Assembly (NCBI GenBank): GCA_022606135.1
Contig: JABYQN010000008.1
Location: forward strand, 2,445,153 to 2,509,152
Direction of reading: 5' to 3'
Source: Fomes fomentarius
Lineage: Eukaryota > Basidiomycota > Agaricomycetes > Polyporales > Polyporaceae
DNA length: 64,000 bases
In this document: piece by piece, positions 1,974 through 46,303 of the stretch
How positions within the stretch are numbered: position 1 is the first letter of the stretch
Layout of the letters: each line of letters opens with the position of its first letter
The notes under the pieces: generated by a model
Database searches by the model: none
What the model saw: the letters and a program-made list of their open reading frames with translations, nothing else
What the model was told of the DNA's origin: nothing
Translations under genes and position numbers: made by a program

Positions 1974-2116
1974 ATGGTGCCCGGGATTGGAGTAGCTTCT
2001 GGGTCGTTCCAGGTCTCTTAGGGTTTCATACACGTGTATCTCTCGTTCAATCAATGCATGCATGTCCGAAGTCTGTTCATTCCCTTCTCCTCGTGCCACG
2101 CAGGCTCCTCTCGGTT

Positions 2117-2345
2117 CAGTTGGGCCGGAACGCACCCACAGACTTCCATTTTTCTGGCGTTAAGTTTATCTGTCACTCAAGGAGAACAAGAACTCGTCCA
2201 CCAGTTTTCTTTGCCTCTGCACACGCTCAAACCAGTAGACGAATTGCCCATCGTGCACGAAGACGCCTTATGCCCCCGGCCAACGACTCACTTGACGCAT
2301 GGCAAGCCCTTTTAGCCATACACTCGTCTGCCGCACTTGTTCATC
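2117..2345 (+). pseudogene. Relic of nuclease-kinase gene N-terminus
   Basis: This DNA aligns with the start of the intact nuclease-kinase gene (about 5327-5560). Both share the stretch around 'cagacttccattt', the 'ggcgttaagttta' block, 'tttgcctctg' and 'gaattgcccatc'. The relic lacks a promoter and start codon, carries small deletions, and stops after about 75 codons. It lies directly after the end of gene B, just as the intact gene lies after a broken B tail. It therefore looks like the remains of an older duplication of a B-then-nuclease pair. Confidence 0.7.
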
Positions 2346-2620
2346 CGCAATAGACCTGCATTAACGCAATAGAGATGCGTTTATAAAACTAGCACTAACC
2401 GCCTGTGTCATCGCACGTCCTGAAGTATGCACATAAAACAATCGGGAATGCCGGACACCGGTGTCCCCAGGTCTTTGGCAGGTGGTCCACACACACACAA
2501 AGATGTATGTGATCCCGGGCCTGCCGCGCACCAGGGCTCCTGGGTTTTTAAGTTATAGAAGACCTATAGACATGTGTTGCCAACGGTAGCACTAATCCCT
2601 TCTCTACCCACTCTTGCGAA

Positions 2621-4254: not shown

Positions 4255-4298
4255 GGTGGGGGTTCAGATGCTGCGGGGGGCCCTGACCTGGGTCCCAC

Positions 4299-4308
4299 TA
4301 TATATACT
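4299..4308 (-). promoter_or_regulatory. TATA-like box upstream of gene C
   Basis: A TATATATA-type stretch lies about 45 bp upstream of the gene C start codon on the minus strand. Similar boxes precede the nuclease-kinase gene, D and F, which supports those start choices. Confidence 0.4.
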
Positions 4309-4380
4309 GTTTATGCGGCTGCCTGGGGTACATCATGCAATCAAATATTGACATCAATTCGGGTTGCCAACCGGGCTTGT

Positions 4381-4938
4381 CTCCCCAGCGTCACATCCGT
4401 ATCCCCACAATTCCTTTGGCAACATGCATGGCTGCCACCCCATTGCCTCACTACGTTGAACTCATGGCGGTCAAGGGCTGGTCCTTGGCCTGCTCCCTAT
4501 GTTCTGTCCGACGCTCCAATTTGGTGGCAGCGACCACTGCACCCCCTCTTGTGCCCTTCAATCTTCGGCCATGGACCCGCAGGGCCATCTTGGTCGTGTG
4601 GCCTTTAAGCGGACGCACGAACTCACCTATGGCACCTCTCACTTTCAGGTAGCCGTTGTTATACTGTCCGCTACCAGGGCGAACTCCAAACATGGTTGGG
4701 CACTGTCGCACGCCTCCTTGGCTCCAACGATTCCGGCCCCCGGTATCAGCTGTGTGAGACCATCTTTGGCCCGCAGGGGGTTGCCCTGTTCGTTGCAGCC
4801 AGGCAATTGCAGCCCAAACCGAGTCGGGCTTCCAATCCACGTCCCTCTGCTTCACATGCCCCTGGCCCTTCACGGGCCCATTCCCGTCAGGGCGACGATC
4901 AGCCAGCCCGTCCTTCCAAGCGACTCCGCACGCAGTAG
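4381..4938 (+). pseudogene. Broken copy of the gene B tail
   Basis: This is homologous to the start of gene B exon 6 (compare 47520 onward) and to its last exon, ending in the same PSKRLRTQ and stop codon. The long internal exon (equivalent to about 47852-49290) is missing, and the 'ctcactttcaggtagccg' junction fuses the two ends. Homology continues past the stop to about 5070, matching the 3' flank of gene B at 1974-2095. This is a truncated paralog with many substitutions and is clearly older than the large segmental duplication. Confidence 0.75.
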
Positions 4939-5171
4939 ATGGTGCCCAGGTTTGGAGTAGCTTCCGGGTGGTTCCCGGTCTCTTAGGGTTCAATACACGT
5001 GTATTAATACACATCTATATCTCGTTCAATCAATGCATCGTCCGAAGTCTGTTCATTCCCTTCTCTGCCCGCTACGGAGGATCCTCTCAGTAAGGTTCGG
5101 CCGCATGCTTTAGGCGTCATGCTGCTTATCTCGTCAAGGTCCGCTGATAACGTTAGCTCTCACGCTCGCTG

Positions 5172-5179
5172 TATATAAG
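5172..5179 (+). promoter_or_regulatory. TATA box of nuclease-kinase gene (left)
   Basis: The sequence gtatataag lies about 55 bp upstream of the ATG at 5231, followed by a pyrimidine-rich stretch (cttcctccctcc). Both are typical of an active fungal core promoter. Confidence 0.5.
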
Positions 5180-5230
5180 AGTGTGGTTACCCGGCACCAG
5201 CCCCTATCTTCCTCCCTCCATTCCAACGCC

Positions 5231-7233
5231 ATGGCCGTTCACGGTAGGTCTCCAATTCCGTTTGACAACCTGTACCCTGACCCTTGGCAGTCATTGGATC
5301 CGATGGCGAGCTCGTCAGCCAGGTTCTCAGTCGGCTGGACACAGCCACAGACTTCCATTTTCCTGGCGTTAAGTTTATTTTACCTGGACACGTCGCCGGC
5401 ACACGGTTGGTCACTGAAGCAGAAAAAGAACTCATCGGCCGGTTTAATTTGCCTCTGAAAGAGCTCGTACAAGTACCCGAATTGCCCATCATGGACGATG
5501 TGGATAGATTCGAGGCCAGGGACTTGCCCCCGGCCAAGGACTTACTCGCCGCATGGGAACGCTGCCATGTTCGCGGCCCGCAGGTCCAATTCCATCAACA
5601 CCGGTCCACTCTCTCAGATGAGGCCTCTGTTGGTGATGTGTGGGTGGGCATAGGCTCCACCATCGCTGCCCTCTTCCAGGGCAGTGGTGCATTGGATGGG
5701 TTGCCCCAACATTCTCTCGATCCTGAAGGTCGGTCATTATATCCTCTCCACTTGAACCCTCTAGATGATGTCCGTTCCACAGGCCTCAATACTGTGCCAT
5801 GGGCCTTCGGCTGCGTTTACACTCCAGCTAGCAAGTCCGGCCCTACCCGCACCGATCTCGCCTTCAAATATCACATCGTGGACATCCCCAACTCTGATGT
5901 CGTCTACCTCGTCATAGAGATCAAAGGGCCCTATCAGTGGTGGTCGCGCGTGAAAGACATCCAGCAACTCATCAACGATGTCCACTTTGACATTCATACA
6001 CATCTCGACGACAAAGACCATGCCGCGCACTTCATCATCCAAGTGAGTACTCCACCAATCACATGGTTCTTCCCCGTCACACATTAACGCGACAAAGGTA
6101 TGGAACCAGATGCTCCGATACGGTGTCGACCTCGCAGTGTTTGGCTGCGTCTCTGGGACCTATCTCTTCCAACGCACTGGCCCCCAGACCCTCTCTGTCG
6201 CAGGCCCGTACTACTTTCCTCCTGACCCCCAAGCTCGCGTCGATCTCGCCATTGAAACCTACATCACAAACGCCAAAGCAAAGCCCCTTGCCTGGTCTAC
6301 GTTCTTCAAATTCGTGTATCTCGCAAGCCGTGTGAGCCATTTGCCCTGGACCCGTCGCTCTCATATTCATGGTGACTGCGCACAGCTCGCTTGGCCCAAA
6401 CTCGTCGAGAGTGTTTACGACCACCCGTGCGCACTGCCGTCTCCCGTCGTCGCGTCCGATGACGCTGACACGTCCATCACACTAGCACATCAAAGTTCTC
6501 CTGTGAGCGCATCAGTGAATATTCCATGGCTCCGCGCACTGGGTAGAGCTGTCGGGCAACTCAAGGACACGCTGCTTCGCCAGTGGCACGAGTACGAGTT
6601 GGGGCGGTGTGAGCTGGTGTGGCTGCGCACAGAGTGGGCATTGCACCCGATCCCGCTCGTACGACAGGAAAAGCCTTTGAATCTCGAGCACGGCATCTGG
6701 CTTGGATTTGTATTTTGGTGCATACATTGGCTGATGTCATTGTTTCGGACGTCGGTGGTCGAACTGCACCTGAACGGGTTGGTCGGCTCAGGCCGGAGTG
6801 CGTCGGTCATGCAAGGGCAGTATGCGTGTGCCCGTGTGGTTGTCAAATTTCCCCATGTGGCACGCCCTCGGGCCATGGCACAGGAGTGGCGTCGCTTGCG
6901 TCGCCGATTGCAGCCGCTGACATCCGCTCAGCTGGCCACGCTTCCCATCCCGAAGTATTATGGACTGTTCACGTACTGTGAGTATGCAGTCACGATGCTC
7001 TCGCACGAAGGCCAAGATTTGGCTAAGACTTCGGCACCGGACAACATCTCGTGAGTGACACCGTCATCATCTCTTGTACTGTGCTCAATGGGTCGCACAG
7101 GACTCTTCTGCACGACGCCGTCTCCAAGCTACGTCAAGTAGGTATCGAGCCGACGGATGTCAGCCATCTGAATGTGTTGTGGGATGGGGAGCGGCTCACG
7201 CTAATCGATTTCGTCGATCCGCTCTGTTCTTAG
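5231..7233 (+). CDS. Crinkler-like PD-(D/E)xK nuclease + kinase fusion, left copy
   Basis: Four exons (5231-5243, 5291-6042, 6098-7050, 7101-7233) join in frame to give 616 residues. The N-terminal half has a restriction-endonuclease-type signature: Asp193, then Glu214-x-Lys216 in VIEIKG, followed by a Gln-containing helix. The C-terminal part has protein-kinase marks: a Gly-rich loop near residue 482, Lys505 in VVVKFP, Asp592 with Asn597 five residues on, and Asp609 in IDFVDP. The protein ends just after this last motif. Kinases that stop soon after the DF(G) strand, fused behind a nuclease, are known from Crinkler-type effectors of oomycetes and fungi. The usual His of the catalytic loop is replaced (PTD), so kinase activity is uncertain. 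No signal peptide is evident. It has a TATA promoter and an intact frame. Confidence 0.65.
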
Positions 7234-7428
7234 ATCAGTGTCACAGTCACGGGCTGTTGTATATGTTTGCAAATGCCATCGCTTCAGCGCACTCTTGTGG
7301 CCAATTTCCCTAAGTCATAGCAGTGTTACTTCGCCGCACGTTTAACCATGCAGCCACCCCGGGCCGGTCAGCGCCGCGTCTGCGTCCTGATGGCATCACG
7401 GCGTTCTCATTCCTTTTCAGAGCGCCTC

Positions 7429-7436
7429 TATATAAT
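7429..7436 (+). promoter_or_regulatory. TATA box of gene D (left)
   Basis: The sequence ctctatataatc lies about 100 bp upstream of the gene D ATG at 7532. Confidence 0.45.
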
Positions 7437-7531
7437 CTCGCCACCTGCTCCGACGCCGCCCGACCCTCTTTCTCTCCCACTGCCACCGTCGGCTATCATC
7501 CCACCATCCTCACCGCTAGCCTTGGCCCCCC

Positions 7532-9396
7532 ATGCCTCTCAATCTGGTTGGCAAGAACCTCAAGAAGACGTTTGCTAATCCCGAGGGCTCACGTCAGACT
7601 GTGTTAACCCATCGTCAGTCCCACGCCGAGGCTGGCGCCCCTGATGGCGAAGCTGCCTTGCAAGGTAACTTTTGGCCAAGTTCACTGCGGTTTCAGCTCA
7701 CTCTTTCGCTCCAGCTTTCCTCAATCTCAAGCAGTTTTGTATGCCAGCTCGCATTTTTCTTAGGAGTTCGCACTCACTACCCTCTGCCCTTTAGCTGACA
7801 ATGAGCAAGACTACGACTTGTCGATTGGAGATGTCGCGTTGGCTCCCCTGGATACACGCACGTTCCAAGGTGAACGGGGCGGTGTCACCCAAGTGAGCCG
7901 TCCCACTCTGTTCGGCTTATCGTTGTGTTAACCTCGACTTGTAGTCGTGCTCCTCATGCCTTGACATCCTCTTCGTCGCCAAATGCATCACTCCCGCTTG
8001 TCCGCATGCACAGTGTGTGTGCGACCCTCACGAGCCCGAAACTGACACAGGCGGCTGTGTCATCCTGCCCGAGGGTCAGACATTCGCGCACTTTTGCAAG
8101 ACCTTCCGATGTGCGCAGTGCTATCGGCGCCTCCGCCAGCCCTTGCCTTACGAGCTCGGCCTCACTGGTGAAAACTTCCTCAATGCCAGCCCGGCCAACC
8201 AAGCGCTCGCGCTGGTCTACTTGTATGGCGTCGACTCACAGTTCAAGGATTCCGTCCTCAACACCACCAAAGCCCTTGGCTCGAGCCACAAACACAATGT
8301 GCTTCGCCCCCATCGTCCGTGTTCGCAACTACTGACTCACGCCCCTAGATTATCCACCACGCGTACAAGGTCTGTTTGAATGGGTTACGGACCATCCAAC
8401 GAAACCAGGCATTGCTCAACTTCCAGGCCGCCCTGACGAGGAGCCCGCTCAAGGCCCGCACTCCCATCGCTATCTGGGTCGACACGCACGCCGCGCCGGA
8501 TGGCAAGATAACTTTCAATTATGGCCCGACAATGGCGCACAGGCTTGGCCTGCCGTCCTCCAGCCTTCTATCGTTCACTGTGCCTCGGGTATGAATGTTC
8601 ATAGTTTGCCAGATCTCACGCACTCACCTTTTATACAGTTCCTGGAAGTCTTTCTTGGGCCGCTCCATCAAGACCTCCGCACACTAAAAGGGCTCAAAGG
8701 CCTCTTTCTGCTTGTTTGTGGCCCGGCTATCAGACTCGCGCTAGACCACATCCGCCGTCTGGTCGAATCGTGAGTGGTCACGCCATGTCCCGGCATTGCG
8801 CTGACTGCTGTTACAGCCGCCTCTTTACATTTGTGATCGCGTCCGAGTCCGACACGACCACCGTTGCAGGGGTGGGCCCCGCGTACCTCGACCTCTACAC
8901 TGCTCTCTTCCTCAAAGAACACCGCAATTCATATCCGTTGTACCAGCAGATATGCCATGGCCTGCTCACAGAAAAGGCCAAGAGCGCGCAGTCGAACTTC
9001 ATCGTGATCTATCGTGATGGCCATGACCAGGTGCACTGCAAACGTTTTGCCCACGAGCATGCCAGGACCGCGAACGCATATGGGCTCCGGGTCGTCTGCC
9101 CCACCTGCCACAACGCTAATAACGTCTTGGTCACGCGCAACCATGACCGCCGCATCGCCCTCTGTTCTGGCTGTGGTTTCCGCAGCCACGTTATACGGCC
9201 GTCTTGGGTAACGCAACCCATGTCTGGGCAGCCTTGGTTCGCGGCCGATTATCCTCTCCCGCCCACGTGGCCCACGATCAGCGACTTCAAGTCGCCCAAC
9301 CCTCCACTTCAGAAGGGGCAGAAGCGCGGCCGGCTGCCATCACCCGGAGAGACACAGGCGAAGCGCGCCTGCCCTCATTGGCAGCGCGCAGATTAA
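7532..9396 (+). CDS. Gene D, left copy: zinc-finger / caspase-like / zinc-ribbon protein
   Basis: Seven exons (7532-7664, 7715-7738, 7795-7892, 7945-8298, 8349-8588, 8639-8769, 8817-9396) give 519 residues. Exon 2 is a 24-nt microexon. From residue 86 there is a Cys/His-rich module (C-x2-C, C-x4-C-x4-C, His, then C-x2-C) of PHD-like spacing. A caspase/CHAT-like region follows. A hydrophobic strand ends in VDTH (His250), then another strand ends in LLVCG (Cys310), then a FVIASES strand; these are the positions expected for a His-Cys dyad. Near the C-terminus a zinc ribbon (CPTC...CSGC) precedes a basic tail. Gene E has the same layout and nearly the same length. The peptidase call is by motif order only. 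It could be inactive or another Rossmann-like fold. Confidence 0.55.
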
Positions 9397-9889
9397 TGCC
9401 GGACAGGGTCAGTTTTCGTGTGTCTCTGGGCCGCTCCATGCGTACGTCAATGTAGGATCATAGTATGTCAGAGTAGTCAAACATGGCCCCGCCGCGATTG
9501 GTTTGCAACGCCCACCAAGTAAGTTGCCGGTCCCCACCACTGAAATTTCTATACATTTGAAGCCCTTTGTGGTACATGCGCACGAAGCCATCGAGCAAGT
9601 CATTGTCATTATGGCTGCGTTGAGCAGGAGAGACCGACGTGTCTCAGCAGCCTCGCCAGTGCCGCGACTTTGCCCCCACTTCTTGGATGGGCCCCAGCGT
9701 TTATCCATCGGTTACGAAGCCAGCGCCGGCAACTGCCGGCTCCCTTTCAAGCTCCGATGGAGAATATCAACCCCTGCAGCCGGCCGGCAAATGCCGACCT
9801 CTCTTGACCTCGAACCACGACCATCGGTTTTCGGCGCCTACGGTTAGGCGCCCGATGCGCTGGCACTCCATCCTTGTGCACGAAGGCCA
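9397..9889 (+). other. Intergenic stretch after gene D
   Basis: I see no convincing gene. The stretch contains GC-rich palindromic bits (repeated gccggc) and the perfect hairpin at 9833-9852. Confidence 0.5.
9833..9852. other. Perfect 8-bp stem hairpin
   Basis: GGCGCCTA, a 4-base loop (CGGT), then TAGGCGCC. It is also present at 57427-57446. It lies about 40 bp before the repeat block that contains the 82-bp array. Confidence 0.8.
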
Positions 9890-10033
9890 CCGCTGCGATG
9901 CCATCCCCCGTTGACCCGTTGCGTACTTCGGAGACCACCCGTTGTGTGGACTCGGGATGGTTGCAGTGGTGGTCCGCACCAGAGGTCCCTCTTTACACCG
10001 GTTTTGCCAGTGTGCCCCTGGGTTCGCAGTGTC

Positions 10034-10926
10034 GTCGAGTGCGCTGTTAAGTGCATGCGAGGTGTCCATGGAGAGCGTACTCTCTGTGGCGGCTCGCACT
10101 CGGCCTCTTTCTCATGTCGAGTGCGCTGTTAAGTGCATGTGAGGTGTCCATGGAGAGCGTACTCTCTGTGGCGGCTCGCACTCGGCCTCTTTCTCATGTC
10201 GAGCGCACTGTTAAGTGCATGTGAGGTGTCCGTGGAGAGCGTACTCTCTGTGGCGGCTCGCACTCGGCTCTTTCTCATGTCGAGCGCACTGTTAAGTGCA
10301 TGCGAGGTGTCCATGGAGAGCGTACTCTCTGTGGCGGCTCGCACTCGGCCTCTTTCTCATGTCGAGTGCGCTGTTAAGTGCATGCGAGGTGTCCATGGAG
10401 AGCGTACTCTCTGTGGCGGCTCGCACTCGGCCTCTTTCTCATGTCGAGTGCGCTGTTAAGTGCATGTGAGGTGTCCGTGGAGAGCGTACTCTCTGTGGCG
10501 GCTCGCACTCGGCCTCTTTCTCATGTCGAGTGCGCTGTTAAGTGCATGTGAGGTGTCCGTGGAGAGCGTACTCTCTGTGGCGGCTCGCACTCGGCCTCTT
10601 TCTCATGTCGAGTGCGCTGTTAAGTGCATGTGAGGTGTCCGTGGAGAGCGTACTCTCTGTGGCGGCTCGCACTCGGCCTCTTTCTCATGTCGAGTGCGCT
10701 GTTAAGTGCATGCGAGGTGTCCATGGAGAGCGTACTCTCTGTGGCGGCTCGCACTCGGCTCTTTCTCATATGTCGAGCGCACTGTTAAGTGCATGCGAGG
10801 TGTCCGTGGAGAGCGTACTCTCTGTGGCGGCTCGCACTCGGCTCTTTCTCATATGTCGAGTGCGCTGTTAAGTGCATGTGAGGTGTCCATGGAGAGCGTA
10901 CTCTCTGTGGCGGCTCGCACTCGGCT
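10034..10926 (+). repeat. 82-bp tandem array, 11 units
   Basis: Units start at 10034, 10116 and so on to 10855, with small variants (catgcgagg/catgtgagg, ccatgg/ccgtgg, cctcttt/ctcttt, catg/catatg). Each unit begins CGAGTGCG and carries CGCACTCG about 55 bp later, so it can fold on itself. It also holds GAGAG-CGTA-CTCTC. Confidence 0.92.
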
Positions 10927-11264
10927 TGTGGGTTCATTACTTATCACCGTTTTTTCACAGGTGGGCGTTGACAGAGGTGAGGGCCACGCCGTCCCTCTGG
11001 GACGGATAGCGTCTTGCCATTCCTATCTCGGTCTTAGGACCGTTGGTTTGTGCAAGACTTGCCCGCACCTCTGTTGCCCTTTGCCGCCGTTATCGACCTC
11101 TGTTGATGCGTAAGAGGCCACCGCTGCGATGCCATCCCCCGTTGACCCGTTGCGTACTTCGGAGACCACCCGTTGTGTGGACTCGGGATGGTTGCAGTGG
11201 TGGTCCGCACCAGAGGTCCCTCTTTACACCGGTTTTGCCAGTGTGCCCCTGGGTTCGCAGTGTC

Positions 11265-11829
11265 GTCGAGTGCGCTGTTAAGTGCATGCGAGGTGTCCAT
11301 GGAGAGCGTACTCTCTGTGGCGGCTCGCACTCGGCCTCTTTCTCATGTCGAGTGCGCTGTTAAGTGCATGTGAGGTGTCCATGGAGAGCGTACTCTCTGT
11401 GGCGGCTCGCACTCGGCCTCTTTCTCATGTCGAGCGCACTGTTAAGTGCATGTGAGGTGTCCGTGGAGAGCGTACTCTCTGTGGCGGCTCGCACTCGGCT
11501 CTTTCTCATGTCGAGCGCACTGTTAAGTGCATGCGAGGTGTCCGTGGAGAGCGTACTCTCTGTGGCGGCTCGCACTCGGCCTCTTTCTCATGTCGAGTGC
11601 GCTGTTAAGTGCATGCGAGGTGTCCATGGAGAGCGTACTCTCTGTGGCGGCTCGCACTCGGCTCTTTCTCATATGTCGAGTGCGCTGTTAAGTGCATGTG
11701 AGGTGTCCGTGGAGAGCGTACTCTCTGTGGCGGCTCGCACTCGGCTCTTTCTCATATGTCGAGTGCGCTGTTAAGTGCATGTGAGGTGTCCATGGAGAGC
11801 GTACTCTCTGTGGCGGCTCGCACTCGGCT
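11265..11829 (+). repeat. 82-bp tandem array, 7 units
   Basis: This is the same unit as the array at 10034-10926, beginning after the same 'gggttcgcagtgtc' leader and ending at the same 'cggcttgtgggttcatt' spacer. Confidence 0.92.
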
Positions 11830-12429
11830 TGTGGGTTCATTACTTATCACCGTTTTTTCACAGGTGGGCGTTGACAGAGGTGAGGGCCACGCCGTCCCTC
11901 TGGGACGGATAGCGTCTTGCCATTCCTATCTCGGTCTCAGGACCGTTGGTTTGTGCAAGACTTGCCCGCACCTCTGTTGCCCTTTGCCGCCGTTATCGAC
12001 CTCTGTTGATGCGTAAGAGGCCACCGCTGCGATGCCATCCCCCGTTGACCCGTTGCGTACTTCGGAGACCACCCGTTGTGTGGACTCGGGATGGTTGCAG
12101 TGGTGGTCCGCACCACAGGTCCAACTCCGTGTAATGCTCTAACTGCCTGTCCCTAGCACGCAGGTGGCCTCCCTGTGCGCATACTTTGTACCGTTTTGCT
12201 TGTCATGTACAAATCTGTAATACTCTCGTGAAATTCACTTTGTTTCCTCCCTCACCCAATTGTGTGCAGCCCTGCTCCCCGTCAGTAGTGCCTCATTGGA
12301 CGCAAGCCTTCAATTCTTAGGTCCTACCTATCTCAGTTGTCGCCCACATGTAGCTTGTGTTTTCGACCCTGCCGCAATGTGTGCGGCCCGGCGATTTCCG
12401 TCAAGTAAGGTTCCGATCACATCCATTGC

Positions 12430-12440
12430 ATATATATATG
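12430..12440 (+). promoter_or_regulatory. TATA box of gene F (left)
   Basis: A gcatatatatatgg stretch lies about 75 bp upstream of the ATG at 12513, supporting that start rather than the longer open frame further upstream. Confidence 0.45.
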
Positions 12441-12512
12441 GTACGTGCCCTCGACCGGTCTTCCCTCAACCCCCATCATTTACGTCAACAACCACACTAC
12501 ACTCCACTCACC

Positions 12513-15372
12513 ATGTTCACCTCCGCACAAGTTGCGCAAGAAAAAAAAAAGACCTTCCGTGTATACCAACACGAGCTCCGCATGTTCGCTGACCTCGACG
12601 ATGTCGACACCCTGGCGGTCACTCAGGCTCTCAACACGTTCCATGCCCTTCTTCCCGTGCAGGACGAGGAGCTTAACTACGAACTTCGTCAGCGGGTCGG
12701 CAAACCCGGTCAGTATCAGGAATCCGAGCCTCCCATTGAGGACTTGACCCACCTCGGCTGGATTCCTCATGCCCATGGTGACGCTGTCCGCGTCATGGCC
12801 AGGATCGTCGCTCTCAACCAATTCATCTACCACCGCATCGACTGGCACAGCATTGGAGCAGAAAACAAGAGTCTCATGGGTATATGCCTAACCGCATCCC
12901 GGGACATGTTGAAGCCGTCCGAAAGACACATCAGTGACGCCATCGATGAATACCTTCGCGCGTACCACACCGGCATCGTCGCCACCATCCTCACCGGTCT
13001 CAACATCATCAAGGCAGTCGTCACAGACTGTGCCGCCGTCACCGCAACCAGTCCCACACGCGACCAAGGGCTGCTCTACCTATACCAGGCGATATGGGAG
13101 CAGTTCCAATTCAGCACCAACAACCCCCAAACACTCGACGCCCTGGACCCGTCCCCGAGGCATGGTTTGTACTACCGGTGTCCGGTCAAATGTATGCCTG
13201 CAGTCCATTAACGCCATCTGGATCATTGATACATTTCCCTAGCCCCAAAAATGTACATCAAGAACAACGAGCTCGAAGCCAAATTTTACTGGGGCACGAG
13301 CTTGGCGTCCAAGACCGAGGGCTCAGATGGATACTGGCACGACGACCATTTCGACGGCTACCTCGCCAAGGTCGATCGATACGTTCGCACTGAACTAATG
13401 TCCGACGCACGCCAAGATGGTTCTGCACGCACGGGTACCATACGCCCATCAATGTTCCTTCCTGTCGTCTGTCTTTCGCACACTTACCCATCTCCAGCCC
13501 CCCCACAGGGCCCGCTCGCCCTTCCGGGTGTGAACATGGCTGACGTTGAAGGTCTTGCAGCGCCAAGTTCCTCTGTCCCGGCCCCGCAGGTTAAGGGAAA
13601 GGGACGTGCACAGGCTCATCAGGGCCCCGCCCAACAGCGTCAGGGGCGCCACGGTAAGCAACGCCAAGGTAAGCATGGTAAAGGCAAGCAACGACTTGGT
13701 CACGATGCACCTGGTCGTTCGTCGGGTTGGGCGAAAGACGTGGACGAAGCACCTGCACCCGGCGCTGGTGACCAGCAACCCCCGCATCGTGATGCCGAAA
13801 CGGTGGACCAGCACCGACCCCGTTCTCAGCCCCCTGAGCAAAATGCGGAGGCGTCTCCCTTTTCCCCCAAACAACCACAATCCCACCTGGAGGACGAACA
13901 CACCATGGCTGGTTCCGACCGCGAACAAGACGGGCATGGTTCTCCGTCATCCAGCTACCGTGAAGAAACTCAAGTCAACGCAGTCATCGACCAGGACTCT
14001 GGGTCGTCATCTTGCTCCGCTATCAACCAAAAAGCCTTCGAGGTCACTCTCACCCCCCCCCTGGTGGATCGCAACCCTTCGTGTTCGACACGCCACTTCT
14101 CTCAAGTAAGCTCATGTGCTCAGATGTACTGAAGCTCTTCTTCACACCACACCTCCAGATATTGCCACCGCTGTGCCCGGAGGGGCCCCCTCCCCTATGA
14201 GCGGCCGTCAGTTGTCCGTGGGTCCAACTGTGCGCTCTATTTCTTTTCGCCAGTGGAGGGCATCCTTTGACACTTACGCAGGCGCAACATGATCCGCCAG
14301 CCCCTGCTACGACCGCTGAGTCCGACAGTCCTCAACCCACAGCTGAGCCCGCCGCGCCGGCCCCCATGAGCGACCGTCAGTTGTCCGTGGGTCCAACTGT
14401 GCGCTCCATTTCTTTTCGCCAGTGGAGGGCATCCTTTGACACTTACGCAGGCGCAACATGATCCGCCAGCCCCTGCTACGACCGCTGAGTCCGACAGTCC
14501 TCAACCCACAGCTGAGCCCGCCGCGCCGGCCCCCATGAGCGACCGTCAGTTGTCCGTGGGTCCAACTGTGCGCTCTATTTCTTTTCGCCAGTGGAGGGCA
14601 TCCTTTGACACTTACGCAGGCGCAACATGATCCGCCAGCCCCTGCTACGACCGCTGAGTCCGACAGTCCTCAACCCACAGCTGAGCCCGCCGCGCCGGCC
14701 CCCATGAGCGACCGTCAGTTGTCCGTGGGTCCAACTGTGCGCTCTATTTCTTTTCGCCAGTGGAGGGCATCCTTTGACACTTACGCAGGCGCAACGTGAT
14801 CCCCCAGTCCCTGCTGCGAACCCAGCGTCCGTCCAACCTCAACCCACCGCTGAGCCCCGTGGAATAGAACAGGGGCGCGGCGCCCAAGTCATACACCCTG
14901 ATCGTCGCAAGCATGTCATTGCCTTTGATGTAAGTGTGGATCATGTATCTTCATCTCCTTACGTTGGCATTCACCTCCATCCAGGATCAACCCGCCGCCA
15001 AACGCTTGGCTGTTCACCCTCCAGGTCTGCAGTCTGTATCTGCAGAGATTGCAGCCAGCAGGTCCGCCGCCACTGGCGCATGGGACAAGAGACGCCAAGG
15101 CGAGAAATCGCTCCACCCGCCATTCGCCCAGCCTTCATCTGCTCACCCTGCCGTCACCCCGACACAAACCGCCGACCCACCCATGCAACTCACACCATCC
15201 CCCGACCGAGAACAGCACTCCCCCCCCAAGGTATGTTAGCTAGGTTATATCGCTTCATGGTTCATGTCGCCAACTCGAGTCATAGACGAAAGACCGATTC
15301 CAACGCCGCAAACACGTTCCCAAGGACGTTACGCCGGTTCCTGGTCCCTCTCAGCCCCCACCCCGTCGCTGA
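12513..15372 (+). CDS. Gene F, left copy: unknown protein with repeated exons
   Basis: The start is MFTSAQVAQ, then a 10-A run that keeps frame. An N-terminal region of about 280 residues (exons 12513-13164 and 13243-13434) looks globular and largely helical but is unrecognised. Next comes a Gln/Gly/Lys-rich low-complexity exon from 13498 (KQRQGKHGKGKQ). Three identical 105-nt exons follow (14282-14386, 14451-14555, 14620-14724), each coding a 35-residue Pro/Ala repeat and each followed by an identical 64-bp intron. The last exons are 14789-14929, 14985-15230 and 15286-15372, ending in a basic RRKHVPKD stretch. The join at about 14105 into the repeats needs a frame change near a run of nine C (14052-14060), or an unseen intron. 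The function is unknown. Confidence 0.6.
14218..14788 (+). repeat. Tandem exon+intron repeat, 169-bp unit (left: 3 exon copies)
   Basis: The unit is 105 bp of exon (35 codons, phase 0 at both ends) plus 64 bp of intron (gtgggtcc...ttacgcag, branch-like ttgac). Four intron copies and three full exon copies are nearly identical; one intron copy has a single T-to-C change (gctccatttc). The right copy of the gene has one unit fewer. Confidence 0.9.
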
Positions 15373-15777
15373 ACCACCTTGCAGTGCTCCTTTTCATCGC
15401 GCCTCATCTGCATGTCTCTCATGCTCTGTCATCTCTGCATTCGCCGTTCTCTCATAATGTCGTAGTGATATACAATCACGGTCCGTCGACAATTCCATCA
15501 TTACTTCGTCCGTACTTTCTATACTAGCGGTTCATGCAATGAATGTGTATATACCGTCCTTGCAAAGTTGCACCCTATCTACCATCCCCACTTGGACAGT
15601 CGACCGTCAATCAAATTGCTAACCCTCAAAGCCACCCAGAATTAATGCTCCCTCTTCGCACTCAAACCCGCCCGCTAATATGTACTATTAGACCCATCCT
15701 CATGGCCACTGTTTCACGTAGATAGCTGGGCAGTAGTAGCGACCACGGTCACGTCACCAGGGCGTAGGGTTGATCCT
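15373..15777 (+). other. Intergenic region between F and G
   Basis: Pyrimidine-rich and AT-richer sequence. I see no gene. It probably holds the F terminator and the G promoter. Confidence 0.4.
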
Positions 15778-18463
15778 ATGAGGCGCCCACACGCGCCCTT
15801 TCAGCGTGCTCTCCGCCAATTGGCAAGCCCTCATCTCATGCCTCCCAATCTCCCAGATGTCAAGCGTAAGAAACGCCGTTTGGCCGAGGAGGTCTCCCTT
15901 GGTCTCGTTGACAACCTCATCGAAAGTCGTTGGGACCGATCTCACCCCTACTACGGCATTGGCCACGAAGATGGAGGTTGGGAGCATCCCGATTCGCCAG
16001 TCAACCTCAGTCGACTCTCTGTCTGCGGTCAGCCTGCCGCCCGGCTAGCAGTTCGATTGCAGGACCTAACATCCATTCTATCACTCCAGATGAAGTCACG
16101 CTGCACGCTTCCATCCCTCTTGCCCCCCATAGTGTGTGCACTTCCACCAATGTTTTGACCCGTTTCCTAACTTAGTGGCAGCCCTCACCCCCACCCGCGA
16201 AGATGGTATAGGTATTTTCCCGGCTGCAGCCAGTGTACTTTGTTTATTCTATATGTGTCTGTTAGGTATGCGTCGCCGCCGCGCTGACGCAGGGTTTATC
16301 CTCGCTGGGGACCCCGTCTCGCCCCCCAAATTCATGCACACGCGGTTTCGCGCCAACCGTGGCGAGCCCAGAACGCCCATCGATTACAGTTATATCAAAG
16401 CGCTCCACTATACCGTCCAGGAGGTTATCTTGTCTTGGCCCGCTTGCCCACCGCACGAAGACAGCGTCGACTCCACGGTCGTTACAGAGTTTGCCTTTTT
16501 CCACGACCGCTTCAAGCCGACTGTCGATATTCTGGTGCAAAAATGTCGCAATGGCGTGGCCACGGACCAAATATTTCGCCGCCCACCCCCGGCTGTGAGT
16601 CCTCAGCCGTTACATGGCGTAATTCGCTCACCTGTTTACACTGTTCCCCAGGGTTATGACTGGGAAAAGCTGGGCAAAGAAGTACGTCATCATTGGCGGT
16701 CGCATGGTGGCCTCCCGCCACATCCTGCTGGGGAAATAGGACGTCAACATCCCTGTTCAAAGGCTGGTAAAAGGGCACTTAGGGTTAGCCCGAGGGCATG
16801 CACCCGAGCTGGCCTTTGGATGTGGATTTTAACCGCCTTGTCTCCCCTGCGATCTGCCAGTATGCCCGCTGTATCATTTCGTTTCCCTCTGTTGCCACCA
16901 CTAAGCCACTCATTTCCAGGCTTCCTCCCTGATCAGTCAAATCTTCAACGTCTTTCACAGCATCGTCGACGCATTTGTGGCGAGCGCACCACATTCCGCC
17001 CCCGGCTCCGCAGCATGGACCCGGCTCTCTGCTGTGCCCGACGTCGTCCTAACCGCATGTGAGTACGGCAAGTTGCATGCACAACAATTGCGGTTGTACG
17101 GTGAACTTGGCGCGCTCGCCTATGACAACGCACGCTGGATACCTTGCCATAAGTATGTCAACGCTTTTCATTACTCTCCCCGTGACCACTTGGTGAGGTT
17201 TGTGTGTGTGTGTCGGTAGGATAAGCCACGACGACCAGGAGTCGCTGTCGAAGAAGTTCATTGTCGAGTCAGAGGCCATCTTCAACTTGGCACACACATC
17301 GGGTGCAGTCGACCAGGAAGATGCGATACTGGTCGATCACACCTGGCAGAAAGTCATGGCGCCTCCGCGCGATGTTGGAATGACTGCAGTAATTCTCTAC
17401 GATGCCGACGCGGACCTATCCAACTTGCCAGATGAAGCCATCGTGAGTGTCTCACATAGGTTCACACCATTCATGTCACAGACACGCCTGCAGATCGGCG
17501 CATGCATTTACAATGCAGATCAATTTGATGCTATTCTGGGGGAGGAGGTGCAGCAACTGATCGAGTTGGAAGCGTCGGCCATGGTTTCTTTCGTCTCGTA
17601 TGCACGCAGCTCTTGAAGGTGTTTCTTTCCTCATATCGACTGTTGCAGCGCCCGTGAAGCTCTCCAACGCGGTGTCGATGATCGTGGTGCCATGGTCAAG
17701 TCCCTCGGGGTACATAGCACCAATGGCATTCGCCACCGCATGGACATACCAAAAGGCACTGCTCACAGTGCCAATCCACGTCCTGCTACTCTCATGCGCA
17801 TAGCTGAGCAAAACAAGATGCGCTTCCTGGTTCGACGTGATGGCGACCGTCAGTGTCATCCCCCGTGTTGTTCATGCGCTCTCACATCCTTCGTCGAGCA
17901 GTTACTCAATCATATTCGTATGCCATGCTGGAGGGCTTTATGCCTCATTTTGCGCGTGCCCAGATGGTGAGGGGGTTCCCTTCCGCAGCGCGCCACGACA
18001 TCCTAACCAGGTATACAGGATGTCGCTCAACGCCATGGCCTATTGAACAAATTCGGACATCCGAACACGTCCGTCTTTGCGTCATTCTCATATGCCGCAG
18101 CCATGCACGTTGACCAGGACGATTCTGTCAGCTGTGGCTGGGTAAGCCGCCGTGACTTTAAGGTACACCGACTTCTATCTGTCCATCCACCATGGTCTCA
18201 CAGTCTCCCTCCATCAGATCCAGCACGACGAATCCAATTTCGTCTACGCAAGTTACAAAACCATCCTGGGATTGTCGCACCGGGCCCACTGGTACTGGGA
18301 TGCACGCAATTGTCCCCATGGTACCACTTTGGGTCGACTCATTGGGGCCCAGCCCAGCTCCTGGAAAACGTATGCCCGGGATCACGCTGATCAGGCAGCG
18401 TGGACCCGGGTCAGTGTCATTACGCACAAAGGTGTCCTTGCCAAAAACTCTGGACTCCAATAG
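15778..18463 (+). CDS. Gene G, left copy: multi-exon protein, possible 2OG-Fe(II) dioxygenase C-terminus
   Basis: The start is MRRPHAPF with a basic KRKKRR patch. Exons I can join in frame include 15778-16027, 16090-16131, about 16176-16206, and 16265-16593. A longer intron (about 16683-16788) follows, then blocks up to 18463. The C-terminal third reads through FASFSYAAAMHVDQDD, where an intron (18133-18208) separates GW from an NFVYASY...HWYWDARNCPHGTT block. An HxD motif followed by a distal His in HGT is the pattern of double-stranded beta-helix dioxygenases, and fungal TET/JBP-like proteins have similar spacing. Assignment to that group is my inference. Several central junctions (16600-16930) are uncertain. 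The right copy is cut by the telomere at 63881, so only this copy keeps the C-terminus. Confidence 0.5.
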
Positions 18464-19207: not shown

Positions 19208-21104
19208 ATGGCGCGCACTAAGCAAACTGCTCAACGTAGCACAGGCCAGGCTGCTCCCAGGGCAGCACTTACTGGTAAGGCGTTGTCTGGGACGCGCCGC
19301 ACTTATTGACAGGCCGCTGCTACACTAGGCACAATTCACCGAGTCAGTCATGCCGAGGACGAAGCCATAATAGACGCATTGACCCACTCCTCGGATGACG
19401 AACGTCTGTCGAGCTCCAAACGCAAGCGCGTTAGACGTTCCACACGCATTCGGGGCAAGGAAGACAGTAAGTCCCAGTTTTGCAGTCATCAAACTCACGC
19501 ACCGACATGTCACAGCGGACGCGCAAGTAACCACGCACACGCAACTCCCGGCAGCAGGGGCACCTCAAGAGACATCCTCCACCGATATCGGACAGACCTC
19601 TGACACGGTTAGGCGCACAGTCTCAGACATCTAACCGCACGCTGATACCACGCCACAGTTCTGCTACTTATGTACGAACGGGGGGGATGTGATCGCATGC
19701 GACGACTGCCCGCGAGTCCTGTGTATGTCCCATGTGCCTCGGGTCAAAGACATCCCCGAAAACGAGCTCGCACAGTTGGTGTTTGTATGTCCTTCCTGCC
19801 ACAATCGGGCGCAGATGCGAGATCAGCCGCACCCATACTACGTGAGTTCGATGCCGTGGTACTCCATGTGACATGCCTGATTGACATTCGACAGGGCCTG
19901 TACCGTGTGGTTAACGGACAGCGCGAGCCCTTCCTGCCGGAATTCCTGGCAGTGCACGCAGTTGGCCGTCGTCCCAGAGACGCGAGGGTGGACACGTCCC
20001 CAGTTGTCATCGTGAACCTGCACTTGGCTTCGCTAGCAGACGCTGGTTCCCCAGCACAAGTCGTGCATGCCACTTTGATGGCTTACTTCTTACGCGACGC
20101 AGCCTCGCTGCTGCATTATATTGATGCACCTTACAACCTCCGCTCGAATGCCGAAGCAGCTGCCCACCGGAATGGCCTCGACACCGCTCTGCGAGTGCTG
20201 GACAGGTCAGTCCTTGTAACAATACTCATTCGATATGAGTTCATGTCACCTCCAGGTTTGAACGTGCGCGAGTCTTGTTCTTTGTGTACACGCACTCCGA
20301 AGAGTCCACTGGAGACCTGTTCTACGCTCAAGGCCAGGCATCTCTCGACCTAAATCAGGTGTGTACGCGGTGTGAGCGCACCGCAATATCATGGCACTGA
20401 CCTCCCACAGTGGTGGGATGACGTTATATCCCCCGGTCTTCAGCAATGTGGCAAGCGGCATGAGCTGACAGTTGCCTTGTTGTCGTGCGGCGCGCTCATG
20501 GACAACCCCGCCAACTTCTCGATTATCAAGAAGCGCGCTGAACTGTCAGTCGTCTGTCTCATCTCAAATAATGTCAGGCCTCTTACGATTCTCTAGGATG
20601 TCTGCCACCCGGCTGTTCGCCTTCGGTGCGACCGCTGTTCAAGCCGCTCTCACGGTGCCCTTCTTCATCAATTTTGTGCACCGCGTCTACATTGAGGCGG
20701 GCAAGATCGACATCCATCACATCGGAGAACTGTTAACATCGTCTGTCTATCTGGGTCGACACACTCCTGTTGTGGTGCTCGCCCCCGATCCGCGCATGGG
20801 CGCTGGACTCATTGCACAACGCTACATATGGACTCATCCCACTTTGAAGCCTTTTGGATCCGAGTTGCCGCTTCAGTGCCCGAAGTGTGGCACAGTCTCG
20901 GCCTTGAAGTCAACTCAGGGAAACGCTGGCGTCATTCTCGTCACTTGTACCTATCGTGGTCCGAGGAGCAAGAGCGTCGAAGGGACAGGTACCGCCGGCC
21001 GGAAGGTGGCATGTGACTACAAGATGGAGCACCGTCTCCCGGAGCAAGCCACTTTCATCAAGGGCGGCGAACGAGGCCAGTGGGTGGCCCAGCCTATTCA
21101 TTAG
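19208..21104 (+). CDS. Gene E: histone H3 tail mimic + PHD finger + caspase-like region + zinc ribbon
   Basis: Eight exons (19208-19274, 19329-19466, 19516-19607, 19659-19841, 19895-20205, 20256-20358, 20411-20544, 20597-21104) join in frame to 511 residues. After Met, the start ARTKQTA..STG..APR..L matches 14 of the first 20 residues of histone H3. Lys4 is kept, while Lys9 becomes Arg and Lys14 and Lys18 become Ala. A basic KRKRVRRSTRIRGK stretch (nuclear-localisation-like) follows. A PHD finger spans about residues 100-155 (C-x2-C, C-x2-C, C-x2-H, C-x2-C). A caspase/CHAT-like region has His277 in VYTHSE, Cys324 in LLSCGA and a LFAFGAT strand. A zinc ribbon begins CPKC at residue 437. PHD fingers commonly bind the H3 N-terminus, so self-recognition or decoy binding is plausible. 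Peptidase activity is inferred from motif order only. Confidence 0.7.
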
Positions 21105-23470
21105 ATAGTACTACGTACATCTACTGCCAATGTGATGTTCTTCTGCCTTGCCACCCTCCGCACAACCGTCTGCCCGCTTCATCGCCGGTAGTATCTTTTT
21201 AGGGCCCGTGTATTCAAAGTCGTAACTTCTAACCTCCCTAAAGGTACTATGCCACAGGTACGCCCTCCGCTCGCCTCCCCGGACTTCCCGCCCTTGGCTG
21301 TGGCGCTATCATCGGTATGCTCCCCTTCTGCACTCGCTATACTCTCTCTCCTCTCTCTCCTCCCACGTTAATTTACCGCACCGCACAGTGCAAACCTCTC
21401 ATAGAAGCAATCTTTCAAACCAATATACGGCCCGACGCCATTCCTCGACACCTCTCAGGACGGCCACTTTGGTGAAATGCACAGGGTCACCCAACATCGA
21501 CCACTGTACAAGCACGCCAACAAGGTTCATCCGGCGGGCAGGAGCTCCAGCGTGTTGCACCAGTGTGAGCTAGGCAGACACTGCGCCGTGCAGCCTGGGT
21601 TTGTCAACCCTGCGCCATCCTGAAGGGGACGCCCTCGTTGTTCCCGATGTGCACATGGACTCGTCTCGCGTGCTCATGCTCATGCCTTGCTCCCACCGGT
21701 GCCATCGTACCGCACCGCGAGCGCCGCAGAAGGGCTTCCCGGTACTCGTGCAGAAGGGCCCAGGGACGCAGAACATGGCGCTCCCCCGCTCATGCGGAAG
21801 CATGTCCTAGATTGGCAGATTCTCGGAAACAGGAGCGGCACGCTAATTCGTGATAGTGTCCAGCGTGCATACCATGATCTCATCCAAGTGCAATGCCAGT
21901 GCGTCAGGGCTGCAACTTTGGCAGTGGAGCATCGTTGGGTTCGGTTAGGCTGGGTCCGTCACATCGGGGGCATCCCGACGGTCACGCTCCTCGTTCTTCG
22001 TAATGTCCACATCGACTCTTCTGACGTCCTCATGCGTTGCTCAACCGGTTAGCGTAGTCCCTTGCAGCTGTCGTCGCCTCAGCGGCTCTGTCTGCAACCC
22101 TTTGTATCGGACACCGACGGGCTTCCCGGTACTCGTGGAGAAGGACTGGCACTCGTGCAGTTTAGGGTTCCTTGTCCGCTGCCCGAACCTCACTCCTGAG
22201 AGGTTCTTCCTCGCGCCTCACGACAACACTGGACGTGGTCGGGCGGATCCTGCGCGCGCCTCGCCCTTGTCTCTTCAAAACCTGTGTGCGTCGCAGCACC
22301 ATACCAAAGCCCGGTCTTCTCCCCAGCGTGCGAGATATTCACTCCAGTTCAATACGCCGTCGCTCCGGCCAACGCAGCATCATCTCTATTCGTGTTTCCT
22401 CTCCCCCTTCTGCAACACAGAATGCCAGCGTCGAATGCGCGAGGCTGGTCAGCCTCCTCCCGTTGTCTTGCCTACGATCAGTTTAGCGCATATCTTCACT
22501 CCGCGGATGGAGCTGTTAGGCAAGCCGTCTAATGACTAACTCTTGTACCATGATGCGGTTAGCTTTCTCGCACTAACAACGAACTATCGGCGCGACCCGG
22601 TCGCACGTCTGTGTACGCCTCGCACTGTGCTTTATGAAGGAGGCTGTCAGAGATCTGGAGCTCACGGGCCCAATCATGATGCAGCGAACTATACCGCCAG
22701 TGTGATAGGCACAGGTCCGCCCCGACCGCAGCTCGGGGGAAAGAAACCTGAACGTTGAGCACGTTTGTGTCCCGGACGGCCCGCCAGAATTCATGAAGCC
22801 TTCCGGCTCCGAGCCCACTTCCGTCCTCCGAGCTCCAGAATCGCCAGTCGCCCGACCTGCGTCATCTGTTCTCACTTGTAACGCGGCCGGGTACACCTCC
22901 CAGTCGGCTACAGCTATAGGTCCCACTACAGGGGCGGGGTTCTGGTGGCTACTGCTCCCATCTCTCTGACCGCTTTCGCCTTTCGTCTGCCGCAACGTAC
23001 GATGGGCAAGGGAAGGGAAATCAAACATCCAGCCCTTCGACGTTAGGGTTTCGTACTATCACGCTTTCATCGGTCGGCCGTCCGCTCGCGCGTGGTCACC
23101 TCTTTATAACCGCAATGAGCACAAAGGGCAACGTTGTGGGCGGGACCTACACGGCCTCCATTGTCTTTATCGCTCGTACCCATGGCCAATTGGTCATTGG
23201 GTTCATTGCTCAGCCACGAGTAAGCAGGTACAGACTTGTGGATACTGGCAAGCAGGGTGAGGGTGTTCGGCCGTTGGGTCCCCGCCAGGTCTGCAGGGTC
23301 AGTACGTGCAGAGGTGCCTGTCGGGTGGCGCATGGTCTTCCCATTGTACCTTAGTTCATCAGTATGAGCGACGTGTAATGCAAGGGCCTTGGCACTACGG
23401 ACCAACGGGCGGGTGCATGGCACTTGTGAGCGAAATGCTGTGACAGACAGCCTTGTAAATCTTTCATAGG
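21105..23470 (+). other. Degenerate region without a clear gene
   Basis: There are many short open frames but none joins into a convincing protein. Two related stretches (about 21634-21755 and 21991-22145) share 'gggcttcccggtactcgtg' and a run around 'cacatcgactcttctgacgtcctcatgc' in diverged form. This suggests an old internal duplication of a now-decayed gene. Confidence 0.4.
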
Positions 23471-40393: not shown

Positions 40394-40955
40394 TGTTGAA
40401 CTTCCGGACTACCGGCTGTGCTCGGACCGGAGTTGTGTACACTTGTTTATGGTCATATGATTAGATAGGCTGTGTTCCTACTTACCATTTATGGTCTTCT
40501 TTGTTCTCCTACTGTACTTTCCCATGACCATATGGTTACTGTGCATTCCTGTGCGTACCAGTGCGTTCTACACTGCACCGGACTCTTCTAGACCTTATGT
40601 CTGACTCATGCTATGACTGTATCTGACTCATACGCCGATACGGACTCTGATTCATCGTCTTATGGCTACATGTGACTGCTTTATTCGCTGACTCATGGAC
40701 TCATCCCTCATGTATATAAGCAGTCCCTTCTTCGCCTCTGCTCTTCAGTCGTTCGCTCACTGACTGAAGAGTAAGTCCCTTACATACATATGCTCTACTA
40801 CCTCTTACTGACTTAGTACTTGTAGTCTCTCTTGTTGTGACTTACAGGTACTTCACTATGCAATAAAGTCGTTCGCTCACTGACTGAAGATCTCTCTTGT
40901 TGTGACTTACAGTGACTTACAGTCGCTCCTCGCCTTACAGGTTCAGAGTTCATCA
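40394..40955 (+). repeat. 5' LTR of copia element
   Basis: 562 bp, TGTTGAAC...GTTCATCA. It contains a TATA box (tgtatataag, about 40711), a repeated 'tcgttcgctcactgactgaag' stretch after it, and an AATAAA polyadenylation-like signal near 40862. By eye it is identical to 46313-46874. Confidence 0.95.
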
Positions 40956-46301: not shown

Positions 46302-46303
46302 AC

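What the first reader, a model, noticed from the sequence alone, without database searches (positions are those of the whole stretch)
19208..21104. A protein that begins with a histone H3 tail and carries its own PHD finger
Seen: after Met, ARTKQTA..STG..APR..L matches 14 of the first 20 H3 residues. The match is selective: Ala1, Arg2, Thr3 and Lys4 are intact, Lys9 becomes Arg, and Lys14 and Lys18 become Ala. A PHD finger with full Cys/His spacing follows at residues 100-155. Known: PHD fingers often read the free H3 N-terminus and Lys4 state, and Met before Ala is normally removed. Inference: the protein may inhibit itself through its PHD finger, compete with H3 for readers, or be a substrate of the Lys4 methyltransferase. 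A caspase-like region follows, so tail recognition could gate a protease. I know of no described fungal system like this.
Basis: partly seen in the sequence, partly recalled or inferred. Interest (0 to 1): 0.93.

Follow-up and report, generated by a model that had tools for sequence, protein, structure and literature searches.

The report
Fungal protease wearing a histone tail
Some mushroom-forming fungi carry a seemingly undescribed family of proteins that start like the tail of histone H3, carry a zinc finger of the type that reads that tail, and end in a caspase-like domain, so a ligand, its likely reader and a probable protease sit on one molecule.

Summary
Window 19208-21104 (+) gives one open 511-residue protein, 8 exons and 7 GT-AG introns of 49-54 nt. 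After Met, 14 of 20 residues equal histone H3, although 10-11 of those 14 codons differ synonymously from each of three H3 genes of the genome. One locus was found, in a subtelomere.

Relatives settle that this is not chance. Of 51, 30 begin with an H3-like tail (8-16 of 20 H3 matches; all others score 4 or less), in Polyporales and in Suillus (Boletales), including hits of profiles that lacked the tail; 12 of the 30 read exactly ARTK. In tail-bearing proteins the tail is the best-conserved segment between the orders: 61%, against 31% finger, 24% core, 13% linker. Lys4 is kept in 30 of 31 tails; Lys14 and Lys18 are lost.

The finger's profile matches CHD4, PHF21A, AIRE and TRIM33, recalled readers of unmodified H3. 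Two predicted models show a caspase/CHAT fold with a conserved His/Cys pair.

Most likely tail and finger bind each other, in cis or between molecules, and gate the protease, with nucleosomal H3 or Lys4 methylation as the switch. That step is inferred: the models showed no docking. Ten literature searches listed no such protein.

The parts
19208..21104 (+). Whole gene, 511 aa; exons 19208-19274, 19329-19466, 19516-19607, 19659-19841, 19895-20205, 20256-20358, 20411-20544, 20597-21104
   Evidence: Spliced frame open to the final stop; 7 introns of 49-54 nt, all GT-AG; the only locus matched in the genome at E <= 0.001
19208..19270 (+). Histone H3-like N-terminal tail, residues 1-21 (Met + H3 positions 1-20)
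   Evidence: 14 of 20 residues identical to H3; present in relatives
19403..19459 (+). Basic stretch around SSSKRKRVRRSTRIRGK (within residues 48-66), possible nuclear localisation signal
   Evidence: Direct reading; the NLS role is inferred
19602..19811 (+). PHD-like zinc finger, residues about 98-150, interrupted by intron 19608-19658
   Evidence: Eight-ligand spacing; profile of nine family fingers matches CHD4, PHF21A, AIRE, TRIM33
19982..20813 (+). Caspase/CHAT-fold domain, residues about 190-415, interrupted by three introns
   Evidence: Fold of two relatives, mapped by alignment
20293..20295 (+). Putative catalytic His277
   Evidence: Invariant in 7 of 7 rows; H in 39 of the 42 rows with a residue, of 52 rows
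20486..20488 (+). Putative catalytic Cys324
   Evidence: Invariant in 7 of 7 rows; C in 43 of the 45 rows with a residue, of 52 rows
20877..21014 (+). C-terminal zinc-knuckle-like region, C437, C440, C460, C482
   Evidence: Direct reading; C440 and C460 invariant in 7 of 7 rows

Best explanation
A member of a seemingly undescribed agaricomycete family of probably nuclear caspase/CHAT-fold proteases that carry both an H3-like N-terminal peptide and a PHD-type finger of the class that reads the unmodified H3 N-terminus. Shown here: the gene model, the tail, its conservation in two fungal orders, the sequence kinship of the finger, the predicted fold of the core and its conserved His/Cys pair. 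Inferred: Met is removed to expose a free ARTK end; that end binds the family's own finger, either in cis (keeping the protease closed) or in trans (linking molecules head to tail, which could bring protease domains together); nucleosomal H3 competes for the same finger; and Lys4 methylation or Thr3 phosphorylation of either tail would switch the interaction. Protease activity and nuclear location are also inferred.
For: Open spliced gene. In 4 Polyporales by 6 Suillus tail-bearing proteins the tail is the most conserved segment: 61% against 13% linker, 31% finger, 24% core. Lys4 30 of 31, Thr3 29 of 31, Gly12 31 of 31, unchanged when each position is left out of the selection of tails. Of the 14 residues shared with H3, 10-11 have different codons from each of three H3 genes of the genome, so protein sequence was kept while silent sites changed. 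A profile of the finger alone finds CHD4 (6.5e-9), PHF21A (2.6e-6), AIRE (6.4e-5), TRIM33 (1.5e-4) and TRIM24 (5.3e-4) among solved structures; that these read unmodified H3 is recalled. The finger has no Trp, so it lacks the Trp of the aromatic cage of Lys4me3 readers (recalled). Models of two relatives give a caspase/CHAT fold. Precedents: BAZ2B, where an H3-resembling linker interacts with its own PHD and lowers H3 binding (PMC5663869: abstract and one Results section); PAF15, whose N-terminal VRTK binds the UHRF1 PHD as H3 ARTK does (PMC8034647, passages).
Against: Neither AlphaFold2 model docks the tail; tail and finger have low pLDDT. Tail positions that PHD fingers usually need (recalled) vary: Ala1 is A in 21 of 31 and Arg2 is R in 18 of 31; only part of this can be laid to decaying copies. 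Conserved distal positions (Gly12, Ala15-Pro16-Arg17, Leu20) lie beyond what a single PHD usually contacts (recalled). Tail and finger do not always go together: P0004 has an intact tail but lacks most of the finger, and P0006, P0013 and P0016 lack part of it, while P0036 and P0041 show a finger start without a tail; gene-model errors may explain some of these. The acidic residues before the first Cys and after the third are not uniform and are absent in the Ganoderma protein. The PHD ligand order is not classical. No expression data.
Confidence: 0.4

Rival explanations
1. The tail is bait or a decoy for something outside the protein: an H3-directed reader, eraser, methyltransferase or histone-clipping protease. 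Interference with the tail would then trigger the caspase-fold domain (integrated-decoy logic), or the tail would titrate chromatin readers.
For: Conservation extends to Leu20, beyond one PHD footprint, with APR..L largely kept and Lys14, Lys18 and Gln19 not kept. CHAT caspase-like domains act in fungal cell death and allorecognition (PMC12881547, passages). A subtelomeric locus and multicopy, partly decaying paralogues in Suillus resemble arms-race genes.
Against: The protein's own H3-reader-type finger then needs a separate explanation. No gasdermin or receptor gene was recognised in 30 of the 117 long frames of the window, scanned with Pfam only.
Confidence: 0.22
2. The tail marks the protein like a nucleosome: Set1/COMPASS methylates its Lys4 (or a kinase phosphorylates Thr3 or Ser10), so that it is recruited, activated or degraded with active or mitotic chromatin, while its finger reads real H3.
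For: Lys4 30 of 31, Thr3 29 of 31, Ser10 28 of 31, while acetylatable Lys14 is lost in 30 of 31 and Lys18 in 31 of 31.
Against: No modification data; position 5 varies (Q 13, N 12, M 5, H 1 of 31).
Confidence: 0.18
3. The tail is a leftover of an old fusion with an H3 gene, or a constraint on the first exon, without a role in chromatin recognition.
For: The match spans the first 20 H3 residues like a captured piece of an H3 gene; some paralogues lack it or have a degenerate version (P0002, P0007).
Against: In tail-bearing copies it is the slowest-evolving segment between two orders, and silent sites are diverged from H3. Intron positions differ: after H3 position 21 here, near position 30 in the three H3 genes.
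Confidence: 0.08
4. In Suillus the family spreads like a selfish element whose protein interferes with host silencing by imitating H3; the single gene in this window would be a domesticated or relict copy.
For: 36 of 51 relatives are from Suillus; several copies show an excess of C-to-T/G-to-A type changes, e.g. 26 forward against 5 reverse of 35 for P0018; four carry a similar C-terminal extension.
Against: One locus here; around it only a 26-nt, 73% complementary inverted pair and a 29-nt direct pair were found; the Earliella copies are on long branches, 0.35-0.7.
Confidence: 0.07

Closest known systems
PAF15 (N-terminal VRTK) binding the UHRF1 PHD finger
   Same: A non-histone protein whose N-terminus imitates H3 ARTK (PMC8034647, passages); some members here start VRTK too (P0016, P0027)
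   Different: A reader finger or protease in PAF15 itself is not known to me (recalled); here ligand and putative reader share one chain
BAZ2B PHD with a histone-mimicking linker
   Same: A PHD finger engaged by an H3-resembling stretch of its own protein (PMC5663869)
   Different: BAZ2B uses a lysine-rich internal linker, not an N-terminal ARTK end, and no protease
DNMT3A ADD domain
   Same: A domain reading H3 unmethylated at Lys4 that blocks a catalytic domain of the same protein (PMC10393158, start of abstract in listing)
   Different: No H3-like tail (recalled); methyltransferase, not protease
Fungal CHAT proteases linked to gasdermins (PMC12881547, passages)
   Different: No NLR, repeat or gasdermin partner recognised in the frames scanned; chromatin-type modules instead
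SNAG-domain factors that imitate H3 to bind LSD1 (recalled, no call)
   Same: N-terminal imitation of the H3 tail
   Different: Recruitment of a demethylase by a transcription factor; different sequence and no own reader

Membership tests
Histone H3 | Histone fold after the tail | tested here: not met
   No histone-fold match in Pfam at E <= 1; the rest is linker, finger, caspase-fold core and zinc knuckle
H3 N-terminal mimics | N-terminal ARTK-like sequence in a non-histone, conserved | tested here: met
   that Met is removed is inferred from the Ala, Val or Thr that follows it
H3 N-terminal mimics | Binding to an H3 reader or enzyme | not testable with these tools
   Needs a binding assay
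PHD finger (C4HC3) | Eight zinc ligands in PHD spacing | tested here: met
   C-x2-C-x8-C-x2-C-x4-C-x2-H-x18-C-x2-C
PHD finger (C4HC3) | His-x2-Cys at ligands five and six | tested here: not met
   Cys-x2-His here, Cys-x2-Cys in four Suillus rows; called PHD-like for that reason
PHD finger (C4HC3) | Pfam PHD above gathering score | tested here: not met
   19.8 bits against 24 for the window finger alone, 16.8 for the P0001 finger
Readers of the unmodified H3 N-terminus (CHD4/PHF21A/AIRE class) | Sequence kinship | tested here: met
   15 distinct PDB sequences at E <= 0.001: CHD4, PHF21A, AIRE, TRIM33, TIF1-alpha (TRIM24), SP140, protein kinase C-binding protein 1 (ZMYND8) and ZMYND11; the synonyms and what each reads are recalled, and for the last three I am not sure
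Readers of the unmodified H3 N-terminus (CHD4/PHF21A/AIRE class) | Acidic residue(s) just before the first Cys and after the third Cys (recalled) | tested here: inconclusive
   Window D98-T-F-C101 and C113-D114; varies among nine fingers, absent in Ganoderma P0005
Caspase-fold peptidases (clan CD) | Caspase fold with His and Cys at strand ends | tested here: met
Caspase-fold peptidases (clan CD) | Cysteine-dependent proteolysis | not testable with these tools
   Needs an assay
CHAT family | Pfam match | tested here: not met
   No CHAT or peptidase C14 match at E <= 1 for the window protein or P0001, P0005, P0007, P0008
Gasdermin-linked fungal protease clusters | Adjacent gasdermin-like gene | tested here: inconclusive
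   30 of 117 long frames of the window scanned with Pfam only; none seen

The most novel reading that the evidence does not exclude
A self-complementary chromatin sensor: the H3-like end of one molecule docks into the finger of the next, building chains that bring caspase-fold domains together and switch on a nuclear protease; free nucleosomal H3 tails, or Lys4 methylation, cap the chains. The protein would measure how much unmodified H3 is exposed and respond with proteolysis or cell death.
Probability: 0.12. Interest if true: 0.96.

Novelty: new variant of a known kind. Interest (0 to 1): 0.86.

Why it matters
Histone mimics are known singly, mostly as viral or regulatory peptides (recalled). 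Here a fungal family keeps an H3 tail, a finger of the class that reads it and a caspase-fold domain on one polypeptide, in two orders. It offers a direct test of whether a chromatin reader can be regulated by a built-in copy of its ligand, and suggests a link between histone state and caspase-type proteolysis in fungi, which lack true caspases (recalled). It also warns that H3K4 antibodies and methyltransferase assays in these fungi may see a non-histone.

Tried and rejected
Artefact or chance start: rejected by tails in relatives found with tail-free profiles, by shuffles and by the upstream in-frame stop. Pseudogene: not supported; the frame is open through all eight exons. A canonical H3 gene or recent copy of one: rejected; the three H3 genes found differ in introns and codons. 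A second mimic in the genome: two patterns gave the three H3 genes, this gene and three further hits whose match to H3 ends at position 4 or 5; a copy with a changed start would be missed by the patterns, and the protein search counts are lower bounds by the tool's note. Docking seen in models: tried twice, tail and finger too poorly modelled to tell. Mobile element around the gene: only a weak 26-nt inverted pair and a 29-nt direct pair. Known domains in the frames scanned: a myotubularin-like fragment, a copia element, and a sub-threshold DUF5774 hit. Literature: ten searches listed no paper whose title or shown abstract describes such a protein; only the listed rows were seen, and subscription papers and preprints were not searched. 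The searches scored only the 8000 and 7999 candidates sharing most words; the third scored all of its 5874, but relatives without shared words are missed, so the taxonomic range is a lower bound. The tail loss in P0002 may be a gene-model error and was not used as evidence. The zinc-ligand labels printed are off by one or two residues; the numbers here come. My first count of conserved tail positions rested on a pattern that itself asked for T/S at position 3, K/Q/R at 4, T/N/S/A at 6, S/C/T at 10 and G/S at 12; I repeated it with each position left out of the selection and the counts did not change.

Full report
The gene. Window 19208-21104 (+) holds eight exons and seven GT-AG introns of 49-54 nt; the spliced frame is open for 511 residues. 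An in-frame TGA stands at 19172 and no in-frame ATG lies between it and the start. In the genome (40.9 Mb, 24 contigs, no name given) all seven matches at E <= 0.001 lie in this gene. The window is the last 64 kb of contig C8 and ends in TTAGGG repeats.

The tail. After Met the protein reads ARTKQTAQRSTGQAAPRAAL, identical to H3 at 14 of 20 positions. Against three H3 genes of the same genome, 10, 11 and 10 of those 14 codons differ synonymously and nucleotide identity is 30-31 of 60, whereas the H3 genes agree with each other at 49-55 of 60. So the resemblance is held at the protein level and is not a recent copy. Two patterns for MARTK starts found the three H3 genes, this gene and three hits whose match ends at position 4 or 5.

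The family. One search with the whole protein (6 hits) and two with profiles lacking the tail (23 and 32 hits) returned 51 distinct proteins: 36 from Suillus, 5 from Earliella scabrosa, 1 from Ganoderma sinense, 1 from Pisolithus tinctorius and 8 without an organism name. Earliella and Ganoderma are Polyporales, Suillus and Pisolithus Boletales. An H3-like tail is present in 30 of 51: 25 of 36 Suillus, 4 of 5 Earliella, 1 of 1 Ganoderma, 0 of 1 Pisolithus, 0 of 8 unnamed. The division is sharp: with the window, 31 of 52 proteins match H3 at 8-16 of 20 Met-anchored positions and the other 21 at 4 or fewer; in 10,400 shuffled sequences the maximum was 8, and 8 reached 7 or more. Exactly ARTK follows Met in 12 of the 30, and ARTK, VRTK or TRTK in 16. 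Of the 21 without, three models begin inside the tail at a second Met (P0011, P0015, P0032) and 18 show none; 11 of these 18 have 259 residues or fewer, 7 are longer (P0002, P0012, P0036, P0037, P0041, P0044, P0047). Within the tail-free searches alone, tails are in 15 of 23 hits and 18 of 32 hits. A tree of 25 rows, rooted at the midpoint for drawing, splits Polyporales with the window (7 rows) from Boletales (18 rows) with 100/99 support; the program warns of long branches for Pisolithus and Ganoderma. Both sides hold tails, so the tail predates their split or has moved between them.

What is conserved in the tail. In 31 tails including the window: Ala1 21 (Val 6, Thr 4), Arg2 18 (His 5, Cys 4, Lys 2, Gly 1, Tyr 1), Thr3 29, Lys4 30, Thr6 29, Ala7 25, Lys9 26 (Arg 4, His 1), Ser10 28, Gly12 31, Ala15 26, Pro16 27, Arg17 20, Leu20 27; Lys14 is kept in 1, Lys18 and Gln19 in none. 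The counts are the same when each position is left out of the selection. In 4 Polyporales-side by 6 Suillus tail-bearing proteins, identity over aligned positions is 61% in the tail, 13% in the linker, 31% in the finger, 25% in residues 154-190, 24% in the core and 18% in the C-terminal part. Some Suillus copies show an excess of changes that C-to-T or G-to-A would give, relative to an intact copy: forward against reverse 26:5 of 35 changes for P0018, 17:5 of 23 for P0020, 16:2 of 39 for P0022, 16:4 of 44 for P0024, 9:2 of 15 for P0040, 7:0 of 12 for P0026, 16:5 of 29 and 20:9 of 33 for P0035; other pairs are even or weak, 8:8 of 20 (P0008-P0017), 13:11 of 46 (P0031-P0028), 5:2 of 11 (P0013-P0016). 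Decay of repeated copies may explain part of the tail variation, but Ala1 and Arg2 vary also in copies not shown to be decayed (VKSK in P0038, AKTK in P0042).

The finger. Ligands C101, C104, C113, C116, C121, H124, C143, C146. A profile of nine fingers alone matched 49 distinct PDB sequences at E <= 1; the 15 at E <= 0.001 are CHD4, PHF21A, AIRE, TRIM33, TIF1-alpha (TRIM24), SP140, protein kinase C-binding protein 1 (ZMYND8) and ZMYND11. From recall, CHD4, PHF21A, AIRE, TRIM24 and TRIM33 read the H3 N-terminus with unmodified Lys4; the first entry that I recall as a Lys4me3 reader is MLL (0.019). The finger has no Trp. A profile of seven whole proteins matched CHD4 (1.2e-7 for the chain; its second finger alone 0.12) and histone H3 tails (5.9e-7) in one search, that is, both sides of a known reader-ligand pair in one protein. 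The finger departs from the classical C4HC3 order and is below the Pfam cut-off. Tail and finger do not always occur together in the gene models: P0004 has the tail without most of the finger, P0006, P0013 and P0016 lack part of the finger, P0036 and P0041 show a finger start without a tail.

How it may work. The anatomy puts an H3-like ligand, a finger of the H3-reading class, a basic stretch and a caspase-fold domain on one chain. Occupation of a PHD by an H3-like stretch of the same protein is measured for BAZ2B (PMC5663869, abstract and one Results section). An N-terminal imitation, VRTK of PAF15, binds the UHRF1 PHD (PMC8034647, passages). A domain reading H3 unmethylated at Lys4 that blocks its own enzyme is known in DNMT3A (PMC10393158, start of abstract in listing). 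CHAT caspase-like proteases are tied to fungal cell death (PMC12881547, passages). I therefore think tail-finger binding that gates the core is the likeliest reading (0.4), with external bait (0.22) and modification-dependent marking (0.18) as rivals. Conservation of APR..L at H3 positions 15-20 is not explained by a single PHD and favours an additional or different partner.

Limits. No transcript, binding or activity data were available; the models say nothing on docking; family breadth is a lower bound; the literature check covers listed rows of open-access papers only.

Noticed in passing
window 63883-64000: Telomere repeats (TTAGGG) end the window, so the gene lies about 43 kb from a chromosome end.
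   Followed up: partly
window 1-17606 and 47596-63881: A 16-18 kb segmental duplication, 99.2-99.9% identical in its three long blocks, whose second copy abuts the telomere; the nine of its frames scanned that lie in the first copy had no Pfam match above a cut-off.
   Followed up: partly
window 40394-46874: Copia-type LTR retrotransposon with two identical 562-bp terminal repeats and a 1612-residue open frame, which suggests a recent insertion.
   Followed up: partly
window 21949-22536 (+): Myotubularin-like phosphatase fragment downstream of the gene (4.2e-8), with a 29-nt direct repeat at 21729 and 22116; looks like a remnant.
   Followed up: no
window 6047-7051 (+): Frame with a GSGRSASV...VVVKF stretch that resembles a kinase N-lobe by eye; no Pfam kinase match.
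   Followed up: no
Suillus relatives P0018, P0020, P0022, P0024, P0026, P0035, P0040: Copies with an excess of C-to-T/G-to-A type changes against intact ones, as might be expected of methylated, silenced repeats (no significance test).
   Followed up: partly
Suillus relatives P0012, P0030, P0035, P0040: A similar C-terminal extension, judged by eye; fusion, neighbouring gene or mobile element is undecided.
   Followed up: no
Ganoderma sinense P0005: Gene model continues into a sequence that its source names Peptidase S53 domain-containing; fusion or model error.
   Followed up: no
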